Of a stretch of DNA of 64,000 nt, positions 12,773 through 63,440 are shown in pieces (the first letter of the stretch is position 1; each line of letters starts with the position of its first letter). The DNA is taken from the NCBI GenBank assembly GCA_036898135.1, contig CM072512.1, positions 5,248,446-5,312,445 of the forward strand, in the 5' to 3' direction. Made by a program: the position numbers and the translations under genes. The notes under the pieces are model-generated. The model saw nothing but the letters and a program-made list of their open reading frames with translations, was not told the DNA's origin and did not search any database. Origin of the DNA: Oncomelania hupensis (Eukaryota; Mollusca; Gastropoda; Littorinimorpha; Pomatiopsidae).

Positions 12773-13772
12773 CCGGAGAAGAAGTTGAGGCAGCAGTGCA
12801 ATCGCTGAAGAAGGGGACGTCAGCGGGCGTGGACAATATACCCGCAGAATTGCTTCCAGCAGGAGAAGAAGCGATGATTTTCGCCCTCACCATTATCTGT
12901 AACAAGGGCCCAGTCGCTTGTCATCACTCTTCACTAAAAGGGTAACCTTCGGAATCGTTAAAATTACCGCACCATCAGCCTCATCTCCATCCCCACAAGG
13001 TCCTCCTAAAAATAATACTCAACAGGTTGAAACCCCAAGCTGAACAAATCATAGCTGAAGAACACGCAGAATTCAGGTCTGGGCGAAGTACCACTGAACA
13101 GATTTTCAACCTCAGAATAATCTGCGAGAAATTCATACAGCGCCAACATTATCTATATCATCTGTTTGTAGACTTCAAGAAAGCATTTGACCGAATCGGA
13201 CATGCAGCTCTGTGGGCAACCATGAGAGTGTACACCATCAACCCTACCATTATTGAAGTAATCAAAAGCCTGTATAACAAGGCTACCAGTGCAGTCATCC
13301 ACAACAGCGCCATCGGGAACTGGTTCAGAACAATAATCGGCGTGCGTCAAGTATGCCTACCCTCTCCAACACTCTTCAATATATTCCTAGAGCGCTTCAT
13401 GTCAGATGCCCTTGCAGATCACGAAGGGACAGTCAGAATATGGGGTAGAGCAATCTCCAACCTCCGTTTTGCGGATGACATTGATGGATTGGCTGGAGAG
13501 GAACTAGAACTTGAACAGCTGGTACAGAAGCTTGACACCACCTCCATAGCCTTTGGAATGGAAATAAGTGCAGAGAAGACCAAAATGATGACCAACAAAA
13601 TCAATGACATCAACACGGACATCAAAGTCCAAGACCAATCCCTCAACACATTGCATAGCTTCAAACATTTAGGAGCCTATGCTGATCGAGTTTTTAAGCC
13701 AGGATAACAGAATATGATAACTTTAAAACAAGTAGAAAAATTAAACATCAGAAAACTCTCTAAACCCCAACA

Positions 13773-20150: not shown

Positions 20151-23100
20151 CTGAAACTAAAGGAAACAACATAACCATTACTTTATAAAGGTTATCAGCA
20201 AAAAGCAAAAGTTTGTGCAAACATGATGATAGTGATAGCTGAATAAACATTAACATGACTCCACATACATTAACATTTGTTTTGGTAAAGTTGCATTTTG
20301 GTGTGAATACACAGACTCGTATAGCTGCACACATAGGAGCCAAGAATTAATTTGTTTCTGCATAGCAGACATAATTTATTTTTCTTGGTAACGCTTTTTA
20401 ATCGGGAAATTCTGGGCCGTCACCCTGGGAAAGACGTAGTCGCAGCCTGTGGCACGCCCAAGACCAACCTACCTAATATTAGTTGTGTTTTTGAAATTTT
20501 GCTGGGGGAGCAAACCGGAGTACCCGGAGAAAACCCCTGAGACGTTGCCCGAGTTAAAAGTAAATAATATTCGGAGAAACATAACGCCCAGATGCTGGAT
20601 CGATCCCACACCTGTCAGGCGCCATTGGTTTCTGGCCTGTGGACAAGGCAAGTTAGTCCCACCTTAGCCCACTTGGCCACAATGCTCGCTATATCTTGCT
20701 GAAGACGCCAACACTGCATTTGAAGTGGGAATTTAAGAACTCCTTCAATGTAATTGCTATCTAGTGGCATTTTGTGCCAGCATCGCTGAGTGGAATACAA
20801 CTCTGAATCCTTAATGACTAATTACGAATGAATAACAAATAGCAACAAAAATAATTTGTATTAATTAACCCATCAAAACAGGTAACAAACACAATAACAA
20901 CAAGACTATCTATTATACAACACCACGATCAAAGTAAAACACACACACAGACACGCAAACACATGTGCTCACACCTACAATGGTGAAACACATTAACAGG
21001 CAAGACAAGAACGTTGGGCAGCCATCAATGCAATACATAAACAAGCGAATACTACTTAAAAAGCATGAGCTAAATGTTTATCTCTCATAAAATATCCAGG
21101 AAAGAAATTGCTATCCCCAAACTCACTACATTTTATACTGGTTGCAACTTTGTAGAGAACGGGATTTTTCTGGGTTTTTTATTATTCGATTATTGTACGG
21201 TGTTTTTGATTGGCTAGGATTCGGGAGCCAATGATATGAAGGTTTGAATTAATCAAGTTTGAATTAGATGAAAAATTGTTCACTCACTCAAAAATTCTGT
21301 GTAAGGCTGGTGTGCCGTGGAGCAGTATGTGTATGTAGGCCAGAAAATAACAAAAAGTTAAAAGAAGGAAAAAAAGTAAATTGTGGAATAACTAAAAGAT
21401 GAAGAAGGCACTGTGAACGTGTCAAGGTGTACAGGTTCGGTGGAACTTTCTATCTGGAAGTGGAAGTTGTATTTTTGTGCTGTAAAAATTACAGGTATCT
21501 ATAACGTTTTTCATGATTGTGGGATTCTGATAAGTATATTTTGAAATTGCATTTGTTGTATTGGAAGGTGGTGAGCTGTTGTCCACTAGGACGGAATATA
21601 ATTTTTCATTGATGTAATAATATTATTAATTACATGGGGCGATAGTGGTAGAGTAGTAGATAATGAAATATGAATGAAAGGCGTGAGTATGTTTACTTGT
21701 AGTAATTTTCATTCATGGAATGATTATATCTGGATTGTGATCAACATCGTAAAAGGAAGGAAGACACGATCACACAAATGTGTTGAAACTAAAGAAGAAT
21801 AAATTATTTGAGTCAGTGAATTGACAGTTGTATATATATATGTCGTATAGCGGCCTACTGGAGGCTTACTTGGAAGTGAGAGGCTTACTCAGGAGCGGCT
21901 GTGGTTCCGTGCTGTCCAGGTGGGGACAGAGAGAGAGAGAGAGAGATCGGAGGCGAGGGACATCGGAGAGGGTCAGACTTACGCCCTTCGTCGTGACCAA
22001 AGTCTACGTTATCTACTCGGGTGGACTGGAGGTCACGATCGCTCCTCCGCCCGTCGACGCTCATTCGTGCGAATCATCTCTGGCATCTAGTGCCAGCTCG
22101 TGTGGAGACGGCCTGTAAAGGTACTGTGATTGTTTGTGCTTAATGTGGTGGTCAGGACAAGTGATTGCCTGACGGCGTTTATCCAGGCTCGGTCGCTCTA
22201 GTGCGGCATTGTCAAACCATTGTGGGATTGGTGTATAAAGTGAAACGATGTTGAAGTATTTGGTGTGAAAGATTAGAGTGAGAGATTGATAAGGATTATT
22301 GTTGATTATTTATATAAATTTTGAGAACGTGGAACGGATATCTGGTGTTGGTGTTTGTTTGTGTTGAGAAAAGTCCGTACGTTTGTGGGTGTGGTAGTTA
22401 ACAGAGAGAACGTGCACGCACACATAATTCTTTAGGAGTCATATATATATATATATTGCACCTACACTAAATATCCATTCGCTACATGTGGTGACCCTGT
22501 TGTTTCTCTGTGTTAGTATTGTAGTTTAAAGGTTGGTAGTATCTAGGTCAACTCTTTCACATTATTGGGTATAGTTTGATTGTCTCCCTTGTTTGATTGT
22601 AGAAGTGGTTTGTTTGTTGTGATTGTTTGATGTGTGATTATCTATATTAGTGGTTTTTAGACCGTCTCCAGTTTCACGGTAGGGCGCTCCTGTATAGTTT
22701 CAGAGTTGCTCAAGGGCTTAGTATCTTTTTCTACCTGTGGGGTCTATATTCTTTTTCATTGCTCTTTCTGCTGTCTTAGTAGTCATTGTTTACATTGGTT
22801 CTAGTATTTGTGTTCTGTAGGCCTAACTTTGTGTGTGTGTGAATCAGTGAATGAGTTAGTAGTTCCATGTTCTTATTTTATTATAGGTTAGTTACAAAGC
22901 CCCTTAGTGTTAATTTAATTTTGATTTTGTTTTTCTTTTAAATTTATTATTAGAAATTTTGCAATTGATTGTTGAATTTTTCTTTGCTTAGTGTTAATAT
23001 ACTTCTTGATTTGTTCTTTGACTTTGTTATTAGTAACTTTGGAATTATTTGTTGATTTTATTGTTGCTTGGTGTGGGTATAATTTATTATCTGTTTCTTT

Positions 23101-26100
23101 AACTTGAACGTTAATAATTTTTTGAAAGTTTTTGTTGAATTGTTCCTTTGTTGTGTATATACATTTCAGTATTGATTGAACTTATTGTTTGAATTTGCGT
23201 TATTATTTAAGTTAGTAATATTTGATTTGTTTATATTATCCTTGTTTAGTCTTAGTAGGTGTTAGTATTCGCCATACTTGTTTCTATGTCAGTATATTTA
23301 TTAAAGTAGTGTTGACTTTGAGGTATTGAAAAAAAAATTATTTTTTTTTTGGAAATAATTTATAGGGTTTAGACATTTGAGGACTTAGATTAATTGAACA
23401 CTGCTGTTATTGATTTGGTATTGAGTTATCTTCGCCTATTATTTATTATAATAATTTATTTTTTAAAAGGAAATTATAGTTGTTTATATGTGAGTGTTCA
23501 TACTTTATCAGTTTATTGAGTTCTCTTAGACTATTGTTTGTTATAAAAAGAATTTATTTTTAAAAAAAGGTAATTATAGTTGTTGATATTTGATTGTTAA
23601 TACTTTATTGTTTTATTGATTTGCCTTACTGCTATTTATTAGTTAGATTTGTTGATATTTGATTGTTAGTACTTCATCAGTTTATTGATTTGGTTCTTGC
23701 TATTTATTGGTTACTTAGATTTGTTTCATTTTGAATTTATTGTTGACTTAGCTTGGCTTGGGCTATTGTTAGTTTTTATTTTTATCATTCTTTCTTGGGT
23801 ATTCGGGACTTAGTGTATATATTGTAGTTTAGGTAGGTGTTGATTTTGATTTATATTTTGAAAAAAAATTTAAAACATGGATGACTATGATGATCTGTTT
23901 GAAAAGTTTCTTAAACAAGCTACTACTTTGGAATTGGCTGACAAACATAAGTATGTTCAAGAATGTTTTCAGCGACTGGAAAGACAAAGAGAACGGGAGG
24001 CTAAACAAACAGAAATAGAAAATGAGTCCAAAAGAAAAGATAAGGAAATGGATATGGAATCCAAGAAGCTAGATATAGAAAAAGAAATGGAATCCAAGAA
24101 ACTAGATACACAAAAAGAATTGGAATCCAAGAAACTAGATACACAAAAAGAGATGGAATCCAAAAGGATGGACATTGAACTTGAGAGGGAAAAAACAAAG
24201 CAGTTAGAACTACAAGCTAGTCAGGGTGGTCATGTTGCTGGTCAAGATCATGATCATGATCAGACTTATGCGAAGCATCAGTTCAAAGCTAGACCAATTT
24301 TTCCTAAACTTCCAATGTTTAGAGAGAAGACTGATGATATTGACTCATACTTGTTTCGTTTTGAAACAAATGCTTCTGCACTTGGCTGGGAAAAGGATCA
24401 ATGGGTTGTTTATTTGTCTGCCTTACTTGAAGGGAATGCTTTAAGTTTGTATCACAGTTTAGCTGCCAATGGACATTGTGATTATGACATTTTGAAAGAT
24501 AACTTGTTGAAGAAATTCCAATGTACTGCTGAAGGTTTCAGAGAGAAATTTCGTTCCACCAAACCAGATGCAAATGAACCGTTTCAAACTTTTGGCATTG
24601 AGCTTAATCGATTGTTTGATCGATGGGTTGCACTTTCTGGTGTCAAGCGTACTCTAGATGGCATAGTTGATTTGGTACTGGGTGAACAATTTCTCCAGAG
24701 TGTTTCTGCAGATCTGGCTACTTTCATTCGCGAACGAGGATTGGTCAGCCTCGAGGACATGGTGAATTGTGCCGAAAGTTACCGTCTTGCTCGTCCGGGT
24801 AAGAATTTGGCTCGCAAAGCCAGTACTTCTGCGTTCGCGTCGGTTGGTCAATTCAATACCGTTGCTGAAACTAATGCCGCTTCGGGTCGTTCGGATTTTC
24901 GCGGTGGGTACGGTGGTTATCGACGTCAAGTTGGTTACCGTGGCCGCTGGAACTTTAATCGAAGTGCGCCACCCACTGTTCCAGATTCTCATCAAGGTCA
25001 AAATCGTGGTGGATTCGGACGTGGCTCGTCCATGAATTTTTCTGGTAAATGTCAACTTTGCAAAGGCAGTGGCCATTCTTCATTCAAATGTCCACTCAGA
25101 AACAATCCGACAAATCCATGCTACATTTGTGGGTTGGGGGGACATGTTAAGAAAAGTTGTCCGTTTGCATCTTCTACACTCAAAACAGATACACAAAAGA
25201 CTCAGGTTGTCTCTGCTGCATTGCCTGTCGATCCTGAGGTTGTATGTTCAGTGGCTAGTCCAGCTGTTGGTCATCTACATTTGGAGTTGGGTACAGTGAA
25301 GGGTACACCATGTTCTGTACTTCGTGACACAGGTGCTACTATTTGTGGGGTGCGTCAGCGATTGGTGTCATCTCTCGAGTACATCGAAGGACAAGTTCGT
25401 TGTAAGACATTTGGAGGTGAGATTACTGTTTATCCACTTGCCAAACTTGCAGTTTCAACTCCATATTTTTCAGGTCAGTTGGTTTGTGCTGTGCTTCCTG
25501 ACCCAGTTGCTGATTTGATCATTGGGAACATTGCTGGGTTGACAGATTCTGTTGTTGGTGCTCAGGTTTCAGTTGAGTTGAGTGTGGCGGCTGTCACTAC
25601 TCGGGCTCGCACTGCGAAGAAAGATTTTCCTCATACTCCTTTAGTTGATGTTTCTCAGGATTTTGGTATTTCTCGTCAGGAGTTGATTGATTTTCAGAAA
25701 GCAGATTCCAGTCTTGCTTCATGTTTCACGTTTGCTCAGTCTGGAGAAAGGAAAGCTGTTGGTTCTGCTACTTATTTTTTCTTTGAGGATGCAGGTGTTT
25801 TGTATCGTTCGTACGAGAAGCCTGGTCAAATTCTACAGCAGATTGTTGTTCCAGAGAAGTTGCGTGCTGCCGTTTTGGCTACTTCACATGATCAGTTGCT
25901 TGCTGCTCATTGTGGTACTCGTCGTACTTTGACGCGAGTTCTTTCGAAATTTTTTTGGCCTGGAGTGTCAGCGGATACTTCAAGGTACGTTCGTACTTGT
26001 GATGTGTGCCAGAAGTCAACTTCGAAGGGGAAGGCTCCGCCAGTTCCGTTGGTTGTGGTGCCTCAGTCATCTACTCCATTTGAAAGGGTCCACATTGACT

Positions 26101-29100
26101 TGGTCGGTCCTTTGTCGCCACCTTCGGAGGAAGGCCATCGATACATTTTGACATTGGTCGACTTGGCAACTCGTTTTCCGGAGGCCGTGCCACTTAAGAA
26201 CATTTCTTCAGTGGAGGTTGCAGAGGCGTTGATGTCGATTTTTGCACGGCTGGGTTTTCCAAAGGTGATACTGTCCGATCAAGGTACTCAGTTTACCTCT
26301 GAGTTGATCAAACAGTTCTACGCACTGTGTGGCACTAGGGCGATTCGGACGTCTCCGTATCATCCTCAGGCAAATGGAATTGTGGAGAGGTTTCACAGGA
26401 CGTTGAAGGCGATGCTTGGGAAGGTTGTTCAGTCGCATCCAAAGGCGTGGCATCGTTACTTGCCTGCTCTGCTTTTTGCTTGTCGGGAGTTACCGTCGGA
26501 GAGTACTGGATTCAGTCCCTTTGAGTTGATGTTTGGTCGCCAACCTCGTGGTCCGATTTCGTTGCTTGCTGATTCTTGGACCCAGGACCAGTCTTCAAAG
26601 GATGCAGATGCACAGCCATTGTATTTGCATGTTTTCGAGTTGAAGAACATCATTGCTGAGACTTGTGAATTGGCTAGGCAAAACTCTGCACAATCATCAG
26701 CAAAGAACAAAGCTTACTTTGATAGGTCAGCTAAGAAACGCACTTTTGACGTTAAAGATGAGGTATTGGTTCTGTTGCCATCCGAGACAAATAAATTACT
26801 CATGAAGTGGTTAGGACCATACACCATACAAGAATGCATGCATCCTGACTACAAGATTGTGGTCAAGGGGAAGACAAAGATTTTTCACGCTAACATGCTA
26901 AAGCGATACTACCGTCGTCCCCAAAACGCTGCTGAAGTTGAAGTCTGTGTCGATTCAGTTGTTTGTGAAGGTGAGGTTGTTGATTGGGGCGATGTGATTT
27001 CAGACAGGTTTTTTGATGTTGACAAAGGGAAGGTTTCTCATCGTAGACATGTGGGTTGTTGTTCAGTGGGTTCGGCAGTGGTGAATACAATAGTGTTACG
27101 TGAAGAAACAACGAGACAGATTTTGGCGTCTGTGGGTGTTGTACTAGATGATGAGGATGATGATGTTGTGCTGCCAACGTTGCCTTTGGCATCATCTATG
27201 ACTGATGAGGACATTTCGTCAGTGGTTTTTGATGAGTTGTTGCCTGCGTCAGATCGTCAGGACCTTTTTTCTGTTTTTTCTGATTTTGCTGATATTTTGA
27301 CAGCAAAACCGGGTTCTTTTGGAGGAGGTTTGTTTTTGGATGTACATTTGACATCAGATGTTCCAGTTCGTCGTAGGGCTTACGATCTGCCGTTTGCTTC
27401 ACGTCAGGTTGTTGAACGAGAAATTCAGACGATGTTGGAGCTTGGAGTTATTGAGAAGTCCAGTTCGGCATATTCTTCGCCTGTGGTCTTGGTGCAGAAG
27501 AAAGATCATTCGTGCCGGTTCTGCATTGATTATAGGGCGCTGAATAAGGTTACTCTTTTTGACGCCGAACCGATTCCAGATGTCACCGAGTTGTACACAA
27601 GACTTGCATCCAGTGTGTTTTTCACTCGCATTGACTTAGCCAAGGGATACTGGCAGATTGTCGTCAATCCTGTGGATAGGCATAAGACTGCTTTTGCCAC
27701 CCACATGGGTCTGTTTCAGTGGGTTAGAATGCCTTTTGGATTAGTTTCTGCTCCTGCTGTTTTTGCTCGCATGATGAGGGTGTTGGAACTCCAGGAAGTT
27801 TCAGCTATGAATTTTTTCGATGACATCCTTGTGCACAGTGAAGCTTTCCAACAACATCTGGTGCATGTGAGGGGAGTTCTTCAGAAGCTGAAGCAGTACG
27901 GTCTTACTGCTCGACCATCGAAGATTGCTGCTGGTTTTCGCAGTCTTGAGTTTCTTGGGCATGTGGTTGGTGAGGGAGTGTTGCGGCCTGAGGGGAAGAA
28001 GATTGAGAAGATTTTGGCCATCCCTACACCTACAACCAAGAAACAGGTTCGTTCGATTCTGGGGCTGTTGGGGTTCTACAGATGCTACATCCCAAATTTT
28101 TCTGCACTGCTTGCACCCATTTCGGATCTTACGAAGGATTCAAAGGTCAGGTCCATTGTGTGGTCAGCTGAGTGTGATGAGGCGTTGACTGCGGTGAAAC
28201 GCTTGTTTTCTACTGCACCAGTCTTGCAGTTGCCACGATTGCAGGAACAGTTTGTACTTCGTACAGATGCCAGTTCGTTTGGTGTTGGTGCTGTCTTGAT
28301 GCAGGAGATGGAGGGTGTTTTGCATCCGGTCTGTTTCGCCAGCAGGAAGTTGTTGCCCAGGGAAGTGAGGTACAGTACCATTGAGAGAGAATGTCTTGCC
28401 ATTGTTTGGGCTGTTTCGAAGTTCTCACGTTTCCTGTGGGGTGTTGCATTCATCTTGCAGACAGATCACAGACCGCTCACATACATGCAGACATGTAGGT
28501 TCAAAAATACGAGAATCATGCGATGGGCTCTTTCTTTGCAAGAGTACAATTTTCATATTGAGCCTCTTCCGGGATCTCGCAACATTCTTGCTGATCTTCT
28601 GTCGCGTTCGGCTGTCGATCAGTTTGTGCCATAGATGTTGTGGAAGAACTTCTGTTCTTGGAAAAGACTGCTGCTTTTCAAAAAAGAAACCTCGGTCGGT
28701 CTCTTTTTTTTGTAGAGGGGGGGGGGGTAGTGTAGAGAACGGGATTTTTCTGGGTTTTTTATTATTCGATTATTGTACGGTGTTTTTGATTGGCTATGAT
28801 TCGGGAGCCAATGATATGAAGGTTTGAATTAATCAAGTTTGAATTAGATGAAAAATTGTTCACTCACTCAAAAATTCTGTGTAAGGCTGGTGTGCCGTGG
28901 AGCAGTATGTGTATGTAGGCCAGAAAATAACAAAAAGTTAAAAGAAGGAAAAAAAGTAAATTGTGGAATAACTAAAAGATGAAGAAGGCACTGTGAACGT
29001 GTCAAGGTGTACAGGTTCGGTGGAACTTTCTATCTGGAAGTGGAAGTTGTATTTTTGTGCTGTAAAAATTACAGGTATCTATAACGTTTTTCATGATTGT

Positions 29101-32100
29101 GGGATTCTGATAAGTATATTTTGAAATTGCATTTGTTGTATTGGAAGGTGGTGAGCTGTTGTCCACTAGGACGGAATATAATTTTTCATTGATGTAATAA
29201 TATTATTAATTACATGGGGCGATAGTGGTAGAGTAGTAGATAATGAAATATGAATGAAAGGCGTGAGTATGTTTACTTGTAGTAATTTTCATTCATGGAA
29301 TGATTATATCTGGATTGTGAATATAATTTTTCATTGATGTAATAATATTATTAATTACATGGGGCGATAGTGGTAGAGTAGTAGATAATGAAATATGAAT
29401 GAAAGGCGTGAGTATGTTTACGGAATATACGGCGTGAGTATGTTTACGGAATATAATTTTTCATTGATGTAATAATATTATTAATTACATGGGGCGATAG
29501 TGGTAGAGTAGTAGATAATGAAATATGAATGAAAGGCGTGAGTATGTTTACTTGTAGTAATTTTCATTCATGGAATGATTATATCTGGATTGTGAATATA
29601 ATTTTTCATTGATGTAATAATATTATTAATTACATGGGGCGATAGTGGTAGAGTAGTAGATAATGAAATATGAATGAAAGGCGTGAGTATGTTTACTTGT
29701 AGTAATTTTCATTCATGGAATGATTATATCTGGATTGTGATCAACATCGTAAAAGGAAGGAAGACACGATCACACAAATGTGTTGAAACTAAAGAAGAAT
29801 AAATTATTCGAGTCAGTGAATTGACAGTTGTATATATATATGTCGTATAGCGGCCTACTGGAGGCTTACTTGGAAGTGAGAGGCTTACTCAGGAGCGGCT
29901 GTGGTTCCGTGCTGTCCAGGTGGGGACAGAGAGAGAGAGAGATCGGAGGCGAGGGACATCGGAGAGGGTCAGACTTACGCCCTTCGTCGTGACCAAAGTC
30001 TACGTTATCTACTCGGGTGGACTGGAGGTCACGATCGCTCCTCCGCCCGTCGACGCTCATTCGTGCGAATCATCTCTGGCATCTAGTGCCAGCTCGTGTG
30101 GAGACGGCCTGTAAAGGTACTGTGATTGTTTGTGCTTAATGTGGTGGTCAGGACAAGTGATTGCCTGACGGCGTTTATCCAGGCTCGGTCGCTCTAGTGC
30201 GGCATTGTCAAACCATTGTGGGATTGGTGTATAAAGTGAAACGATGTTGAAGTATTTGGTGTGAAAGATTAGAGTGAGAGATTGATAAGGATTATTGTTG
30301 ATTATTTATATAAATTTTGAGAACGTGGAACGGATATCTGGTGTTGGTGTTTGTTTGTGTTGAGAAAAGTCCGTACGTTTGTGGGTGTGGTAGTTAACAG
30401 AGAGAACGTGCACGCACACATAATTCTTTAGGAGTCATATATATATATATATTGCACCTACACTAAATATCCATTCGCTACAAACTTAAGGCACAAGTAA
30501 GTAAAAAGCATAACAAATATTTTAAGGACTACATACAATGACCTTAGACCTAGATCTAAAAGTATTACTTAAGTTTCCATAGGCATCATATCAAGTAACC
30601 TTAAGCCTTGCATAGAGAAATCAATATTAAAAGCAACTTTTTTTTCCAAATTACTATACACGTGAGATAAAAACAGCATAAAGAACCCTAAACAAATAAT
30701 TAAACTCCTTTCTACATTCAAGACTCAATGGAAAATTGAATTTATGTGGGGAAAAAATTGTTGCAGCATTTATATCTCCAAACTACATTGCTTCAGAAAT
30801 ATAACTTATAATGCAATACCATACTAAGCAAATAATTAGATTGTATTGTACCTTATTTACTAGGAATGAACAAATAAATACAAATCTATTAAGCATATTA
30901 ATATATATTTTCACAGTCCTGGACATAAGAGCAGACACAAATACAGCATACTATTTCAAAGACTATCAGGCAGTAATATCTAAAATATTTACAATCATTA
31001 AAACAAAAAATCAAAAAAATTAAAAATACACCAAAGTTATTGACTATTAAAGTAGCAAACGGTCAGCAAAAAAATAGCAAAATTCAAATTCAGAATTAAT
31101 ACTAAGTGAAAACGCATCTACAGAGATAAAGCTTAAAGCACAAAGGTTCTTCTATTACTAAATGAAAACATTGTAGGTAAAAAAAAACAAAAAGCAAGAC
31201 ATGCTGACGATGTACCTCTCCAGTTCGGACATGGACCTTCACAGCAGCGTTCAGATGAGGATGGCAGTGTTAGCACGACAATGTTAGGTAGTGTTAGCAC
31301 GACAACATTGTGGTTATTAAGCACACAAGGACGTTGCAAAATCTAGTGTCACTTTTGCAACAATTGATGTTAACAATGAATTCAACAATCTACATAAAAA
31401 ACATGTTGCCGGCTACACATACGCGAGTCAAAAAAAGCGCACTGATGCACATTGTTTTAAATCCAAACAAGCTAAGATTCTGGCATATTTCAATTAATTT
31501 TGCAAAAGATAACAGCATCAATGTAAAAGCGGTGTCGGTCGTATAATGTAAAAGCTGTGCCACGCTTGTGCAGACAATGAGCACACTAGGACACTTAAAC
31601 ACTACATAACTAACTTAACATGAATTATACATACACATGTACTTAACAACTGATAATGTAGTTTTAGTGTGTTTCCATAATAAGAATTAACTGAAAGACG
31701 CTGGGGAGATCATTGTAATGTGCCTAGTAGCTTAAAGTGCTGCAGTCAGTTACATTCTGTCTCGGAGTATTTTCAAGGATTACATCCCTTCTGGGATCTT
31801 GATGGGTTGTAGGTCAGGGGAGGAAAGGAGGGAGGAGGGTGGTGAGGGTGACTGTTCGGGTAGAATTCAATAATACTGGCTTTGTGAGGGTCAGAGTACT
31901 TGGAACTAGTGGCTCCTCTTCTGAGGTATGTCTAAGGTGTAAGGGAGTTATTACGGCTTTTTGAGGGAAGAAAGGTATCTGGAGTTGTAGGATAAGTTAA
32001 TAGAGAACAGTCTGAACAAGAACAACAGTAAGAAGGCCTACCAGACTAAGAAGCGGCTGACAAGTGTTAAAAAGCCCAAGGTCTCCCCGATCCAAAGCAA

Positions 32101-35100
32101 GTCTGGCATGTGCCTTACAGAAGAACAAGAAGTCTTGGACAGACGGACAGAGTACTGCTCTGACCTGTCCAACCACAAACCAACGGAGACCCATCAGTTC
32201 TAGCTTGTCCCCAGAACAGAGAAGAAGAAGAAATCTTCCTAATTGATTCTTCGAGAAGAAGTTGAGGTAATTGTCCAATCGCTGAAGAAGGGGAAGTCAG
32301 CGGGAGTGGACAACATACCAGCCGAATTACTTCAAGCAGGAGGTGAAGTGATGATCAACGCCCTCACCATTACCTGTAACAAGATCTGGCAAATTGAGAA
32401 ATGGCCTACACCATGGACCCAGTCGCTTGTCATCACTCTTCCCAAAAAGGTAACCTTCAGAGTGTTAAAATTGCTGCACCATCAGTCATCCAAGCAAGGT
32501 CCTCCTGGAAATAACACTCCACAGGTTGAAACACCAAGCTGAACAAATCTTAGCTAAAGAACAAGCAGGATTCAGAGCTGGGTAAAGTACCACTGAACAC
32601 ATTTTCAACCTCAGAATAATCTGCGAGAAATACCTATAGCACCAACATCATCTATATCATGTGTTTGTAGATTTTAAGAAAGTGTTTGACCGAGTCGGCG
32701 TACAGCTCTGGGCAACCATGAAAGTGTACAACATCAGCCCCAACATTACTGAAGTCATCAAAAGCCTGTGTGACAGACAAGGCCACCAGTGCAGTCCTCC
32801 ACAACAGCGCCATCGGGAACTGGTTCAGAACAACAATCGGCATGCGTCAAGGATGCCTACTCTTTCTGACACTCTTCAACATCGTCCTAGAGTGCATCAT
32901 GTCAGATGCCCTTGCAGATCACGAAAGCAGTCAGCATAGGGGATAGAGCAATCAATCTCCAACCTCCGTTTTGCGGATGGCATTGATGGATTGGATGGAC
33001 AAGAAACAAGAACTTGAACAGTTGGTACAGAGGCTTGACACCACCTCCAGAGCCTTTCGAATGGAAATAAGTACAGAGAGGACCAAAATGATGACCAACA
33101 AAACCAATGGCATCAACACGGACATCAAAGTCCAAGACCAGTCCCTCAGCACAGACTCAGTGCATAGCTTTAAATATTCAGGAGCCATTGTATCAGACAA
33201 TGGGTCCCGACAGGAAGTCCTCTCCAGGGTCGCACAAACAACTGTTGCCCTGACAAGTTTGACGCACATTTGGAAAGACAGGACCATCAGTCTACACTCC
33301 AAGGTAAAGCCGCTGCGCTCCCTTGTCATCTCCATCTTCCTATACATTTGCAAAACATTGACCCTCACAGTAGACCTACAACGAAGAACACAATCATGGA
33401 GATGAGGTGCTACAGAAGATTTCTGAGCATTTTCTATACCCAGCAATCACCAACGATGAAGTCCGACAGACCATCACACAAGCCATTGAACAACACGCTG
33501 GCATGCTCACAGTGGTGAAGAAATGGAAACTCCCGTCACCAGAGCATCAGGCCTTGTAAAGACCATCCTGCAAGGCACAGTGTAAGGAGGCAGAAGAAGA
33601 GGGAGACAGAAGTAGAGGTGGGAGGACAACATTGGAGAATGGACTGGCTTGACACTGAGCGAGGCCATGAGGTTGCTGAGAACAGAAAAAGATGGCGTAC
33701 ACTGGTTAAACGATCATCTGTGGTGTCTCAACGACTTTCAAGTTACGGGATAGGATAGGATAGGATAGGATAGGACAGGGTAAGTTTAGGGCACGCATAA
33801 CAAAATTATTGGCTTCATGAACACCTAAACTAACGTGAACTACACAATAGTGATTTGACTTACTTTCTCCTGCTTTCCCTTGCAGGTTCTCTCTCGGATG
33901 TGCTGCGATGTTTCCTGAACAAGTCCTTGTAGCGACCTTCAGGTTCTGACCGGTACCCCGAGTCGTCGGCTGCCATTGACCCTGAACCTGTACAATCACA
34001 ATCATCTGAACACACAATGGTTAAAAACAAAGAAGAAGCCACGCATAATAATAGTAATAATAATATTATTTATTATTATTATTATAACTAGGAAACTTGA
34101 TAAGCGAGAAATAAACACAAAATAAATAACAAAAACAACAATAATAAAAACAATAACAATAATAATAATAAAAATAATAATCATCATCATCATTTGTTCT
34201 AATTTTATACTTACTATTTTTGTTTTGCTTGGCCGGAAACAACTTTTCCAATGTGATCCTTTGGACGAATAGATTTCTTATGTTTTAAGTAAGGCACAAA
34301 CTGACAAAGGCTAAATAAGATCCTTTAGCTTTCATTTCTGACATCTTTAATAAATCACACTGAAATATTATCCTTTCGTAACTTACCTTTTTGAGTAGTC
34401 TTTTCATAGGATGGTCGGTAAGGGTTAAAGTCTGAAAAAAACAAAACCCAGCACATTTATTAGGATTCGAGTTACGATGGCTCAAACACCATAAAAATAA
34501 ATAAATAAATAAAATCAAAAGTAAGGGTTAAATTAAGAGTCTGAAGAACACAAAGCAACAAATTTAATACTCAAATACAATCAAAATAAATAATGTCAAA
34601 TTTTAAAATCCATGAATAAACACACAAGAGACATAGGTCACAATCTCCTCAATTCAAAGGCAAATTCATGGGCTTTATCAGAAAAACTTGCAGAGCATTG
34701 TTTTGTATCACACACTGAATACATTTTAAAAATAGTAATTTTCAACTGGAAAACGATGATACCTTCTTCTGACTTTGTGTCCGAAATGTCATCTGGGAAT
34801 TTGTACGTAGGCTTGTACTTGTTTTGTTCTGCAAAAATACATACTATAGCAAAGGTTTGTGAGCGCCAATACAATAGTAAAACTCTTTATCACTAAAACC
34901 TCAAAACTCCTGTTGGCAAAGTACATCACATGAAGAAAAACTATGAGAAGTTATGCAAAAAGGTACAGAGATGGAAACAAAACTACAACATTTTACAAAG
35001 AAATGCATGAACAGCACAAACACACATACTTAATGTTAAAAATATTAACAGTAACCTAGTGCATCAAATCTATCGGTGAATATTTGTGAACAATGCTTAA

Positions 35101-54296: not shown

Positions 54297-57200
54297 CATT
54301 ATTATTATTACAGCAGACTGACCTGGTTTCGTGAAGCTGGAGGGGCTTTTTAATCCGTTGACTTGATCTGGCGGTTTCTCTGAAAACAGCAATAGAAACC
54401 AACATGACTCGTGATGTTCTGGATACTTGGAAGTGTGTCAACAATAAAAAGAAAGTTTGTCATTTCATTCTGTAGGATAAACAATATAACATTTGAGGTA
54501 TATCACAGCTACAGGTGCATAGTCCATGGGGCTTCATATCCACCAAAAGAAGGATGAGGGGTGAGGAGGTGGAGATTTTGGAATAGGAGTGAGTGTAGGT
54601 GGTATTGTACCCAGGCAAGGTGGTATTGTGCCCAGGCAAGGTGGTATTGTACCCAGGCAAGGTGGTATTGTGCCCAGGCATGGTGGTATTGTACCCAGGC
54701 AAGGTGATATTGTACCCAGGCAAGGTGGTATTGTACCCAGGCAAGGTGGTATTGTGCCCAGGCAAGGTGGTATTGTACCCAGGCAAGGTGGTATTGTACC
54801 CAGGCATGGTGGTGTTGTACCCAGGTAAGGTGGTAGTGCACCCAGGCAAGGTGGTATTGTGCCCAGGCAAGGTGGTATTGTACCCAGGCAAGGTGGTATT
54901 GTACCCAGGCATGGTGGTGTTGTACCCAGGTAAGGTGGTAGTGCACCCAGGCATGGTGGTGTTGTACCCAGGTAAGGTGGTAGTGCACCCAGGCAAGGTG
55001 GTAGTGCACCCAGGCAAGGTGGTATTGTGCCCAGGCAAGGTGGTATTGTACCCAGGCAAGGTGGTATTGTACCCAGGCATGGTGGTGTTGTACCCAGGCA
55101 TGGTGGTGTTGTACCCAGGCATGGTGGTGTTGTACCCAGGTAAGGTGGTATTGTACCCAGGCAAGGTGGTATTGTACCCAGGCATGGTGGTATTGTACCC
55201 AGGCAAGGTGGTATTGTACCCAGGCAAGGTGGTATTGTACCCAGGCATGGTGGTATTGTACCCAGGTAAGGTGGTGTTGTACCCAGGCATGGTGGTGTTG
55301 TACCCAGGCAAGGTGGTATTGTACCCAGGCAAGGTGGTATTGTACCCAGGCAAGGTGGTGTTGTACCCAGGCATGGTGGTGTTGTACCCAGGCATGGTGG
55401 TGTTGTACCCAGGTAAGGTGGTAGTGCACCCAGGCAAGGTGGTGTTGTACCCAGGCAAGGTGGTATTGTACCCAGGCATGGTGGTATTGTACCCAGGCAT
55501 GGTGGTGTTGTACCCAGGCATGGTGGTGTTGTACCCAGGTAAGGTGGTAGTGCACCCAGGCAAGGTGGTATTGTACCCAGGCAAGGTGGTATTGTGCCCA
55601 GGCAAGGTGGTATTGTACCCAGGCAAGGTGGTATTGTACCCAGGCATGGTGGTGTTGTACCCAGGTAAGGTGGTAGTGCACCCAGGCAAGGTGGTATTGT
55701 GCCCAGGCAAGGTGGTATTGTACCCAGGTAAGGTGGTAGTGCACCCAGGCAAGGTGGTATTGTGCCCAGGCATGGTGGTATTGTACCCAGGTAAGGTGGT
55801 AGTGCACCCAGGCAAGGTGGTATTGTGCCCAGGCAAGGTGGTATTGTACCCAGGCAAGGTGGTGTTGTACCCAGGCATGGTGGTGTTGTACCCAGGTAAG
55901 GTGGTAGTGCACCCAGGCAAGGTGGTATTGTGCCCAGGCAAGGTGGTATTGTACCCAGGCAAGGTGGTATTGTACCCAGGCATGGTGGTGTTGTACCCAG
56001 GTAAGGTGGTAGTGCACCCAGGCAAGGTGGTATTGTACCCAGGCAAGGTGGTATTGTACCCAGGCAAGGTGGTATTGTACCCAGGCAAGGTGGTATTGTA
56101 CCCAGGCAAGGTGGTATTGTACCCAGGCAAGGTGGTAGTGCACCCAGGCAAGGTGGTATTGTGCCCAGGCAAGGTGGTATTGTACCCAGGCAAGGTGGTA
56201 TTGTACCCAGGCATGGTGGTGTTGTACCCAGGTAAGGTGGTAGTGCACCCAGGCAAGGTGGTATTGTACCCAGGCAAGGTGGTATTGTACCCAGGCAAGG
56301 TGGTATTGTACCCAGGCAAGGTGGTATTGTACCCAGGCATGGTGGTATTGTACCCAGGCAAGGTGGTATTGTACCCAGGCATGGTGGTATTGTACCCAGG
56401 CATGGTGGTATTGTACCCAGGCAAGGTGGTATTGTACCCAGGCAAGGTGGTATTGTACCCAGGCATGGTGGTATTGTACCCAGGCAAGGTGGCATTGTAC
56501 CCAGGCATGGTGGTATTGTACCCAGGCATGGTGGTATTGTACCCAGGCAAGGTGGTATTGTACCCAGGCATGGTGGTATTGTATCCAGGAAAAGTGGTAT
56601 TGTACCCAGGAAAGGTGGTATTGTACCCAGGCAAGGTGGTATTGTACCCAGGCAAGGTGATATTGTACCCAGTCAAGGTGCTATTGTACCCAGGCATGGT
56701 GGTATTGTACCCAGGCAAGGTGATATTGTACCCAGGAAAAGTGGTATTGTACCCAAGCAAGGTGGTATTGTACCCAGGCAAGGTGATAGTGTACCCAGGG
56801 AAGGTGGTAATGTACCCAGGCAAAGTGGTAGTGTACCCAGGCAAGGTGGTATTGTACCCCGGCAATGTGGTATTGTAGCCAGTCAAGATGTCATTTTACC
56901 CACGAAAGATGGTATTGTACCCAGCCAATGTGGCATTGTACCCAGGAAAGGTGGTAGTGTACCCAAGTCAAGTGGTATGGTACCTAGGAAAGGTTGTATT
57001 GTACCCAGGCAAGGTCGTTATTGCACCCAGACAAAGTACTTGTATATTATAAAAGTATTTTATAAAGGAACAAAGTTTGCAATAGGTACTGACCATGAAA
57101 AGATCTTGGAGGTTCTGATGGCACATTTGGAAAAGTCTGGTCAGCTCCTTCAACAACTGAAACATAAACACAATACCAATCAGAAAATACACCCCAATCA

Positions 57201-61842: not shown

Positions 61843-63440
61843 CTGCACGACAAGACAGAACCAGACCATGTCAGTATCAACGTCAACAACAAACCATACA
61901 GCAACCACACAGCGCACATTGCATCAGTTCACACAAAAGAGAGGAAATCGGCCCAGGAATTCGTCACCACAAAAAAGTTATCATCACCACAGAAAAATCA
62001 TCTTCAAGTCAAAGTTCTCAAGAACAAATCAATGCATCATTTCAAACAATCCATCATCAAATCAATCATCCAATCAAATCAAACGAGAGCAACCCTGTTT
62101 TGAGCAGCAAAGCTGTGCTCTTAAAACGTTCACACAATTCAACGTCTCTAATCAAACTTTAATTAAGAAATGAAACAGCGCCGGCTTCTGGTTAAAAGAT
62201 GGTGGAAGTTTTGGATGCAAAGAGATTAGGGAAGAATAACTGTCAACTGATTCGATAGGAAAAGAAATAACAGATTTGTTTAAAAACAATGTCACATTGT
62301 CAGGGGTTGTGGGGTTGGGTAAAATTTAACAATTCTTACTAATCAGGTGAAGCGATTACAATCTACACAATTATCTACTGCCCTTTAGCAAACGCCGTCG
62401 TCAACTGGTCAAATCGTTTCACACCTGAAAATCTAATCTAAGATCGATGTAAACATTCTATGCCAATATCCAATTACTGACGGAAGGGTAGTCGTAGAAG
62501 GGGAAAACAAAGGCTGGAAAATCTATGGGATTTTACTGTCTTGTAATGTTCATGTAACAAAGATTCAAAACTACTGATTATGCAAGGCACTACATATTTA
62601 TTTCTTGGAGTCTTCAGAGCTAGAACTGAAAAAAGGAACTGGCTCCCATAAATATTTTCTTTAAAAGAAGGTTTTGCCTTTAAAAAAAAAGTGTCACCTT
62701 TAACAGTCTTACAGAATATGGAGATACTATCTGGGTAGTAAACGTAGCGTCCAAGCAAAGCTCAATAAAACAAATATTTTCTGTAAAACGGTATTCATGT
62801 TATTTTTTCCTTGGTAGTCTTACGAAAACATAGCAACGTTCACTGTGGGATAAGGGTGTCATCAAAGCATTGTAATAATTATCCAACGAACGCTGACAAG
62901 AAATCCTGCTGGAGTAGGCAGCATTGATCTTTGTGCGGTAATGTGAAACATAGCGAACTACAACTGATAAATGCCTGTTGACACAGCAAACAACAGCTGA
63001 CAAATGTCTATTGAAACTGCTGATTTACGGTATAAATGGCTGTGGACACTTATCGGAGCTTGATTAATGACAGTGGACATCGATTTAAGGAATGGCCAAT
63101 GTTACGTTGAAACGCGCACGATAGTTCGTGTGTGACGAGCACGATAGATGCGATCGTTTTGTTTTGCTAAGCATGCAATAACAGAGTGTATTTATCCTTG
63201 ATTTGATTTTGCATTGTTATTAGAAGAAGATTTGTATAACGTTTGGTAATTTTAGTTGGTCGATATTCTTTGAGAATTTTCTAGAGTTGGTTGTTTACTA
63301 TCGATCGAAGCGTATGGATAATTCTAGTGGTAACTAAAGAAGCTTCCATCCCAAATAAGGTTGTATGACGTGAGACAGTTATGACGAAATGTGTTTTGTT
63401 TGGTTATAATTATGTCTTGCCCGAACGTTCTTTATTTCTC
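61843..63440. other. Upstream flank or intron of the SORBS gene
   Basis: No further minus-strand exon with matching phase 1 was found to the right edge. Short ORFs at 61756-62173 (plus) and 62474-63003 (minus) have no recognisable domain. Confidence 0.45.

What the first reader, a model, noticed from the sequence alone, without database searches (positions are those of the whole stretch)
21151..30482. Intact gypsy element with integrase upstream of reverse transcriptase
The ORF order is Gag, protease, integrase (HHCC, D-35-E, GPY/F), reverse transcriptase, RNase H. Ty3/gypsy elements normally end with integrase. The reversed order was described for Gmr1-type elements, first in deuterostomes. 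Finding an apparently active copy, with gag and pol in one frame, in what looks like a protostome genome bears on how widespread and old this lineage is. The RT box reads FFDDIL rather than the usual Y[LV]DD.
Basis: partly seen in the sequence, partly recalled or inferred. Interest (0 to 1): 0.8.

Follow-up and report, generated by a model that had tools for sequence, protein, structure and literature searches.

The report
Gmr1-like retrotransposon in a snail genome
The window holds a young, intact copy of a jumping genetic element whose enzymes come in an unusual order; it belongs to a known family (Gmr1-like) already seen in other invertebrates, here present in many copies in what is probably a snail.

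Summary
Confirmed: 21151-30482 is a complete LTR retrotransposon with 5-bp target duplication, LTRs differing at 2 of 1332 aligned bases plus a 420-bp repeat expansion, and one 1585-codon frame Gag-PR-IN-RT-RNaseH. The order is inherited: 120 of 120 listed protein relatives and 17 of 17 fetched own-genome copies share it; RT and IN trees each put integrase-first elements, echinoderm ones included, on one supported branch apart from 14 canonical-order gypsies. Gag is SCAN-related. So it is Gmr1-like, though named Gmr1 could not be added to the trees. The novelty claim fails: Gmr1-like elements were reported in crustaceans (2013) and an annelid (2021); one-frame Gag-Pol and FFDD boxes are usual in the group. 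Host probably a caenogastropod. The frame is under selection (dN/dS 0.11-0.20, 8 copies). Beyond the finding: another Gmr1-like family in this genome includes copies with an in-frame 885-nt deletion of RT, Gag-PR-IN-RNaseH staying open and conserved, which implies mobilisation in trans by intact relatives, with mouse IAP 1delta1 as precedent.

The parts
21146..21150 (.). target-site duplication, left (AACTT)
21151..22486 (+). 5' LTR, 1336 bp, TGTAG...CTACA
22489..22497 (+). primer-binding site candidate TGGTGACCC, 2 bases after the LTR; match to the 3' end of tRNA-Trp is recalled, not tested
   Evidence: sequence
22487..23876 (+). leader, 1390 nt, 27.6% G+C, with short tandem repeats
23877..28634 (+). 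single Gag-Pol open frame, 1585 aa
24531..24794 (+). Gag capsid region, SCAN-related (E 1.2e-8)
25050..25160 (+). two CCHC zinc-knuckle motifs of Gag
   Evidence: (one, below cut-off)
25284..25556 (+). aspartic protease region, DTGA motif
   Evidence: (below cut-off)
25794..26909 (+). integrase: HHCC, D-D-35-E, GPY motif
26910..27368 (+). linker between integrase and RT
27369..27971 (+). reverse transcriptase, box FFDDIL (FFDD at 27813-27824)
28161..28547 (+). RNase H
28717..28730 (+). polypurine tract candidate, 11 G then TAG
   Evidence: sequence
28731..30482 (+). 3' LTR, 1752 bp; tandem 145-bp array at 29174-29740
30483..30487 (.). target-site duplication, right (AACTT)

Best explanation
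It is a recently inserted, coding-intact Gmr1-like Ty3/gypsy LTR retrotransposon. It should copy itself by the ordinary LTR-retrotransposon cycle: transcript from LTR to LTR, one Gag-Pol polyprotein without frameshift, cleavage by its protease into Gag, IN and RT-RNaseH, reverse transcription from a tRNA at the PBS with plus-strand start at the G-rich tract, integration by IN with a 5-bp duplication. The integrase-before-RT order is an old, inherited trait of the clade that changes where the polyprotein is cut, not the chemistry. Shown: anatomy, LTR identity, duplication, shared order, one branch in two trees, purifying selection. Inferred: transcription, polyprotein processing, primer, present-day mobility.
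For: Anatomy. 120 of 120 listed relatives have IN before RT, 104 with Gag-PR-IN-RT-RH matched in full. Own genome, 33 match rows with 30 of 64,915 candidates scored: 13 full-length at 95-100% incl. the window (9 without stops), 11 partial at 94-98%, 5 full-length of a sister family at 71% (no stops); of the last 4 rows, two are the halves of one further copy and two are extra pieces of copies already counted. LTR pairs, some partial, found in 14 of 18 examined copies, 97.9-100% identical per long piece; identical 5-bp duplications can be read in 5 of the 18 (window, L015, L017, L019, L025). Trees; smaller sets. Window against 8 copies: dN/dS 0.11-0.20. SCAN link to Gmr1-like Gag: PMC3424704 and PMC4592553 (passages).
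Against: The named type elements (Gmr1 of cod, Cigr-1) were not found in anything I searched, so membership rests on order, SCAN-type Gag and grouping with echinoderm elements. Six of the 14 canonical rows of the final trees come from contigs of bacterial MAG records (presumed eukaryotic contamination), and many canonical rows are long branches. Support for the single RT branch falls from 100/100 to 95/80 once more distant IN-first rows enter. No expression data.
Confidence: 0.93

Rival explanations
1. A canonical gypsy element whose integrase was moved by a rearrangement in this copy or this genome only.
For: Ty3/gypsy elements usually end with integrase; 9 of 10 gypsy contigs found in prokaryote assemblies do.
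Against: All 120 listed relatives, incl. Littorina, Nucella, Pecten, Argopecten, Patiria, Lytechinus, Holothuria, share the order; IN-first is one branch in both trees.
Confidence: 0.01
2. A Ty1/copia element or a gypsy-copia hybrid, the copia-like order coming from recombination.
For: Order Gag-PR-IN-RT-RH is that of copia.
Against: Pfam finds RVT_1, RT_RNaseH and Integrase_H2C2 and no copia RT model at E up to 1 (that copia RTs have a model of their own is recalled); IN has GPY and aligns with Ty3 IN; IN and RT trees agree on one branch. No copia rows were in the trees.
Confidence: 0.02
3. A separate IN-first lineage that gained the order independently of vertebrate/tunicate Gmr1.
For: Type elements were not in the tree; in the RT tree the window sits in a subclade (24 of 36 IN-first rows) whose named rows are all snail, while echinoderm rows sit in another.
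Against: Echinoderm and mollusc IN-first rows form one branch; Gag is SCAN-like as reported for Gmr1-like Gag.
Confidence: 0.04

Closest known systems
Gmr1-like Ty3/gypsy clade (Goodwin & Poulter 2002; known to me through PMC8220671, original not read)
   Same: IN upstream of RT; gypsy-type IN and RT; SCAN-related Gag; single Gag-Pol frame; no env
   Different: longer LTRs (1.34-1.75 kb) and 1.39-kb leader, 9.3 kb in all; fish Gmr families are 6.1-6.5 kb with LTRs of 337-518 bp (PMC11117352 table, passages)
IN-first proteins of Littorina saxatilis (P0003, 69% identity over residues 600-1585) and Nucella lapillus (P0036, 65%, best local match over 51% of that region)
   Same: same order, nearest named relatives
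   Different: separate families; only protein records seen
Crustacean Gmr1-like GyRex4, Gychoro2, GyMaja1, GyLiva4 (PMC3587641) and annelid LGF3 (PMC8220671), passages read
   Same: Gmr1-like in protostomes, published earlier
   Different: sequences not compared here; GyRex4 is known only in its RT/RH domains
Mouse IAP 1delta1 (PMC7411935, passages)
   Same: precedent for the RT-less sub-finding: internally deleted LTR element that still codes for a protein and needs GAG and POL in trans
   Different: retroviral, deletion in gag-pol makes a GAG-POL fusion; the snail one loses RT and keeps Gag, PR, IN, RNase H

Membership tests
Gmr1-like clade | integrase upstream of RT | tested here: met
Gmr1-like clade | RT and IN group with deuterostome IN-first elements, apart from canonical gypsies | tested here: met
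   (RT 30 IN-first + 14 canonical rows, 95/80; IN 31 + 14, 96/86; in 94% of 200 bootstrap trees each)
Gmr1-like clade | groups with named Gmr1 / Cigr-1 | not testable with these tools
   type sequences did not appear in any search made
Gmr1-like clade | SCAN-related Gag capsid | tested here: met
   PF02023 E 1.2e-8, 35 bits, cut-off 27
Gmr1-like clade | one Gag-Pol frame, no env | tested here: met
   only 96 nt between the stop and the 3' LTR (coordinates)
Ty3/gypsy | gypsy-type RT, RNase H, H2C2 integrase with GPY/F | tested here: met
Ty1/copia | copia-type RT | tested here: not met
   no copia RT model among the 11 families at E up to 1
active LTR retrotransposon | transcription and new insertions | not testable with these tools
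   no expression or population data; LTR identity only

The most novel reading that the evidence does not exclude
In the same genome a second Gmr1-like family has given rise to an RT-less, still protein-coding lineage (Gag-PR-IN-RNaseH, one frame) that arose once, is kept under selection for its own Gag and IN, and multiplies with RT borrowed from intact relatives: a lineage that has handed over only its polymerase.
Probability: 0.35. Interest if true: 0.55.

Novelty: new member of a known kind. Interest (0 to 1): 0.36.

Why it matters
It adds a well-preserved, recently mobile member from a probable mollusc, with relatives of several depths in one genome, to a clade first described in deuterostomes, and fits the view that the integrase-first order arose once and before the split of molluscs and echinoderms, or has spread between them (the trees do not decide). 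The RT-less sub-family offers a natural test of which parts of a polyprotein an LTR element can give up and still spread.

Tried and rejected
Local rearrangement and copia origin: rejected by shared order and domain types. A retrovirus-like env: no room between the stop codon and the 3' LTR. RT scans of IMG/VR contigs: no confirmed relative. Phage records by protein: no match. Structured RNA and tRNA in the window: none. Host by mitochondrial COI and copy/solo-LTR count by LTR DNA: not completed, machine busy. Own-genome RVT_1 search and search with a canonical-order protein: not answered, so no canonical gypsy of the own genome is in the trees. Own-genome search with the RT-less ORF: not answered, so the number of RT-less copies is not known. 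Homologues of the RT-less ORF: 22 hits; nearest, P0130 (58%), breaks off before RT, so RT-lessness elsewhere is open. Single or repeated origin of the RT-less copies: 33 variable columns of the linker give no fixed difference except two at the breakpoint, and 33 variable columns of RNase H show no clean split by eye; unresolved. dN/dS against the 71% sister family: synonymous sites saturated, not usable. Literature searches that gave nothing usable. [quoted passage not shown]

Full report
The element. Two LTRs (21151-22486, 28731-30482) begin TGTAG and end CTACA and are flanked by AACTT. They differ at 2 of 1332 aligned bases, by 4 bases in an AG run, and by 420 bases because a 145-bp unit present once in the 5' LTR is there about four times in the 3' LTR. 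Since LTRs are as a rule identical when made, the expansion happened during or after insertion (inference). A PBS candidate TGGTGACCC lies two bases inside the 5' LTR end; I recall it as complementary to tRNA-Trp and did not test it. An 11-G tract precedes the 3' LTR. One frame of 1585 codons reads SCAN-type Gag, two CCHC motifs, protease (DTGA, Pfam score below cut-off), integrase with HHCC, DD35E and GPY, then RT (FFDDIL) and RNase H.

Is the order real and inherited? In the 120 relatives listed out of 1820 the order could be read in 120 by matching the window's own domains: 104 Gag-PR-IN-RT-RH, 8 PR-IN-RT-RH, 7 IN-RT-RH, 1 IN-RT. That list is ranked by similarity to the window's IN-to-RH part, so it favours the same order and does not estimate its frequency. 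As contrast, 9 of 10 gypsy contigs from prokaryote assemblies end with IN, and of the 22 hits of a later search 16 have RT first, 4 have IN first, and 2 could not be scored for order. In the window's genome (1.45 Gb, 428 contigs, unnamed) 17 of 17 fetched copies (12 of this family, 5 of the sister family) match collinearly over residues 1-1585.

Phylogeny. With Ty3 as root, IN-first rows make one branch in the RT-RNaseH tree (30 IN-first, 14 canonical; 95 bootstrap / 80 SH-aLRT) and in the IN tree (31 and 14; 96/86). Earlier sets with fewer canonical rows, rooted on those rows, gave 100/100 and 94/99 (36 and 37 IN-first, 9 canonical) and 100/100 and 99/98 (39 and 41 IN-first, 5 canonical). Rows dropped: of 121 proteins, 2 (RT) and 1 (IN) were too short a match; unnamed relatives were thinned to every 5th, 6th or 12th by tree; L034 (broken frame) was left out throughout, Ty3, L028, L030 and L033, L030 and L033 of the final trees; of the 16 RT-first proteins seven were used. 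Starfish, urchin and sea-cucumber elements lie inside the branch with scallop and snail ones. The window's nearest rows are a sister family of its own genome, P0002 (unnamed, JGI) and Littorina P0003. The tool warned of long branches among the canonical rows. Thus a local rearrangement is out, and Gmr1-like is the best name, with the caution that Gmr1 itself could not be added.

Host. An ORF at 60800-61870 (-) has 8 homologues, of which the only named ones are two isoforms of one Pomacea canaliculata protein at 49%; two unnamed ones are closer (58-59%). The element's nearest named kin are Littorina and Nucella. A caenogastropod snail is likely (inference).

Copies, age, selection. The genome search scored 30 of 64,915 candidates, so counts are lower bounds: 13 full-length copies at 95-100% with the window, of which 4 hold stops, 11 partial ones, one more copy in two halves, and 5 of a sister family at 71% without stops. 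LTR pairs, some partial, were found in 14 of 18 copies (97.9-100%), and identical 5-bp duplications could be read in 5. Synonymous distance from the window to 8 copies is 0.05-0.13 with dN/dS 0.11-0.20: several source copies have kept working proteins. LTR pairs less diverged than copies are from each other fit continuing activity of several lineages. No expression was tested.

What is known. PMC3587641 (passages) calls its crustacean sequences the first Gmr1-like elements in protostomes; PMC8220671 (passages) adds an annelid family and repeats the order as the clade's mark; PMC8556966 (passages) says Gmr1 occurs in several phyla but did not find it in its own annelid set. The mollusc survey PMC6238403 (passages) names Gmr1 only in its background and lists a Cigr-1 clade and 16 new clades; whether some of these are IN-first I could not see. 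A search for Gmr1 with mollus- gave 27 papers, 20 listed, listing read only; among the listed titles I saw none on Gmr1 elements in molluscs beyond those named here. I make no claim of first report.

RT-less relatives. A Pfam RNase H search of the genome scored 150 of 12,532 candidates. Six of the places were fetched: in five IN precedes RT, and in the sixth (L038) IN precedes RNase H and RT is missing while the frame stays open. Four more places, picked for frames near 1210 aa, show the same junction (with L038 5 of 5), and Pfam finds no RT in L038 at E up to 1. In the IN tree L038 joins Littorina P0101. Two of the five copies, refetched with flanks, have LTR pairs at 99.9 and 99.7%; I did not establish target duplications for them. 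Of 20 more RNase H stretches (17 from frames of 1471-1536 aa), 10 are 96.6-99.0% identical in DNA to that of L038 and 10 belong to other families; 7 of the 10 come from frames of 1499-1507 aa. One of these (L068) was read upstream: RT is there, and the RT-less form lacks 885 nt in frame between short similar stretches. Four more kept the linker at the RT-length distance (4 of 4); their RT was not read. Among five RT-less copies (10 pairs) dN/dS is 0.07-0.11 at dS 0.06-0.10. The simplest reading is deletion between the short repeats, perhaps by template switching, and mobilisation in trans by intact copies, as for IAP 1delta1. The low dN/dS can also come from repeated deletion out of selected intact copies or from recombination with them; the linker columns do not decide.

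Verdict. The RT-less sub-family is the more unusual thing, with a known precedent in kind.

Noticed in passing
L038, L042-L047 (G000:C13:47.1 Mb, C2:36.6 Mb, C15:30.9 Mb, C11:16.8 Mb, C1:165.6 Mb): Gmr1-like family, five copies seen, with the RT domain deleted in frame (885 nt) but Gag-PR-IN-RNaseH open; LTR pairs 99.7-99.9% in the two copies checked; relatives with RT-length frames in the same genome, one read and found to hold RT.
   Followed up: partly
29174-29740: 145-bp tandem array expanded in the 3' LTR only (about four units against one in the 5' LTR).
   Followed up: partly
54597-57034: 21-bp minisatellite of about 116 units, open in several frames on both strands.
   Followed up: no
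12946-13707 and 32243-33405: RT-like fragments looking like non-LTR elements (by eye from the ORF list).
   Followed up: no
60800-61870 (-): ORF with a Pomacea canaliculata homologue at 49%, used as host hint.
   Followed up: yes
L026 (contig of a Candidatus Thiodubiliella MAG): IN-first gypsy element in a record labelled as a symbiotic bacterium; presumably host DNA left in the assembly.
   Followed up: no
24011-24163: 33-bp tandem repeat coding for a charged stretch in the N-terminal part of Gag.
   Followed up: no
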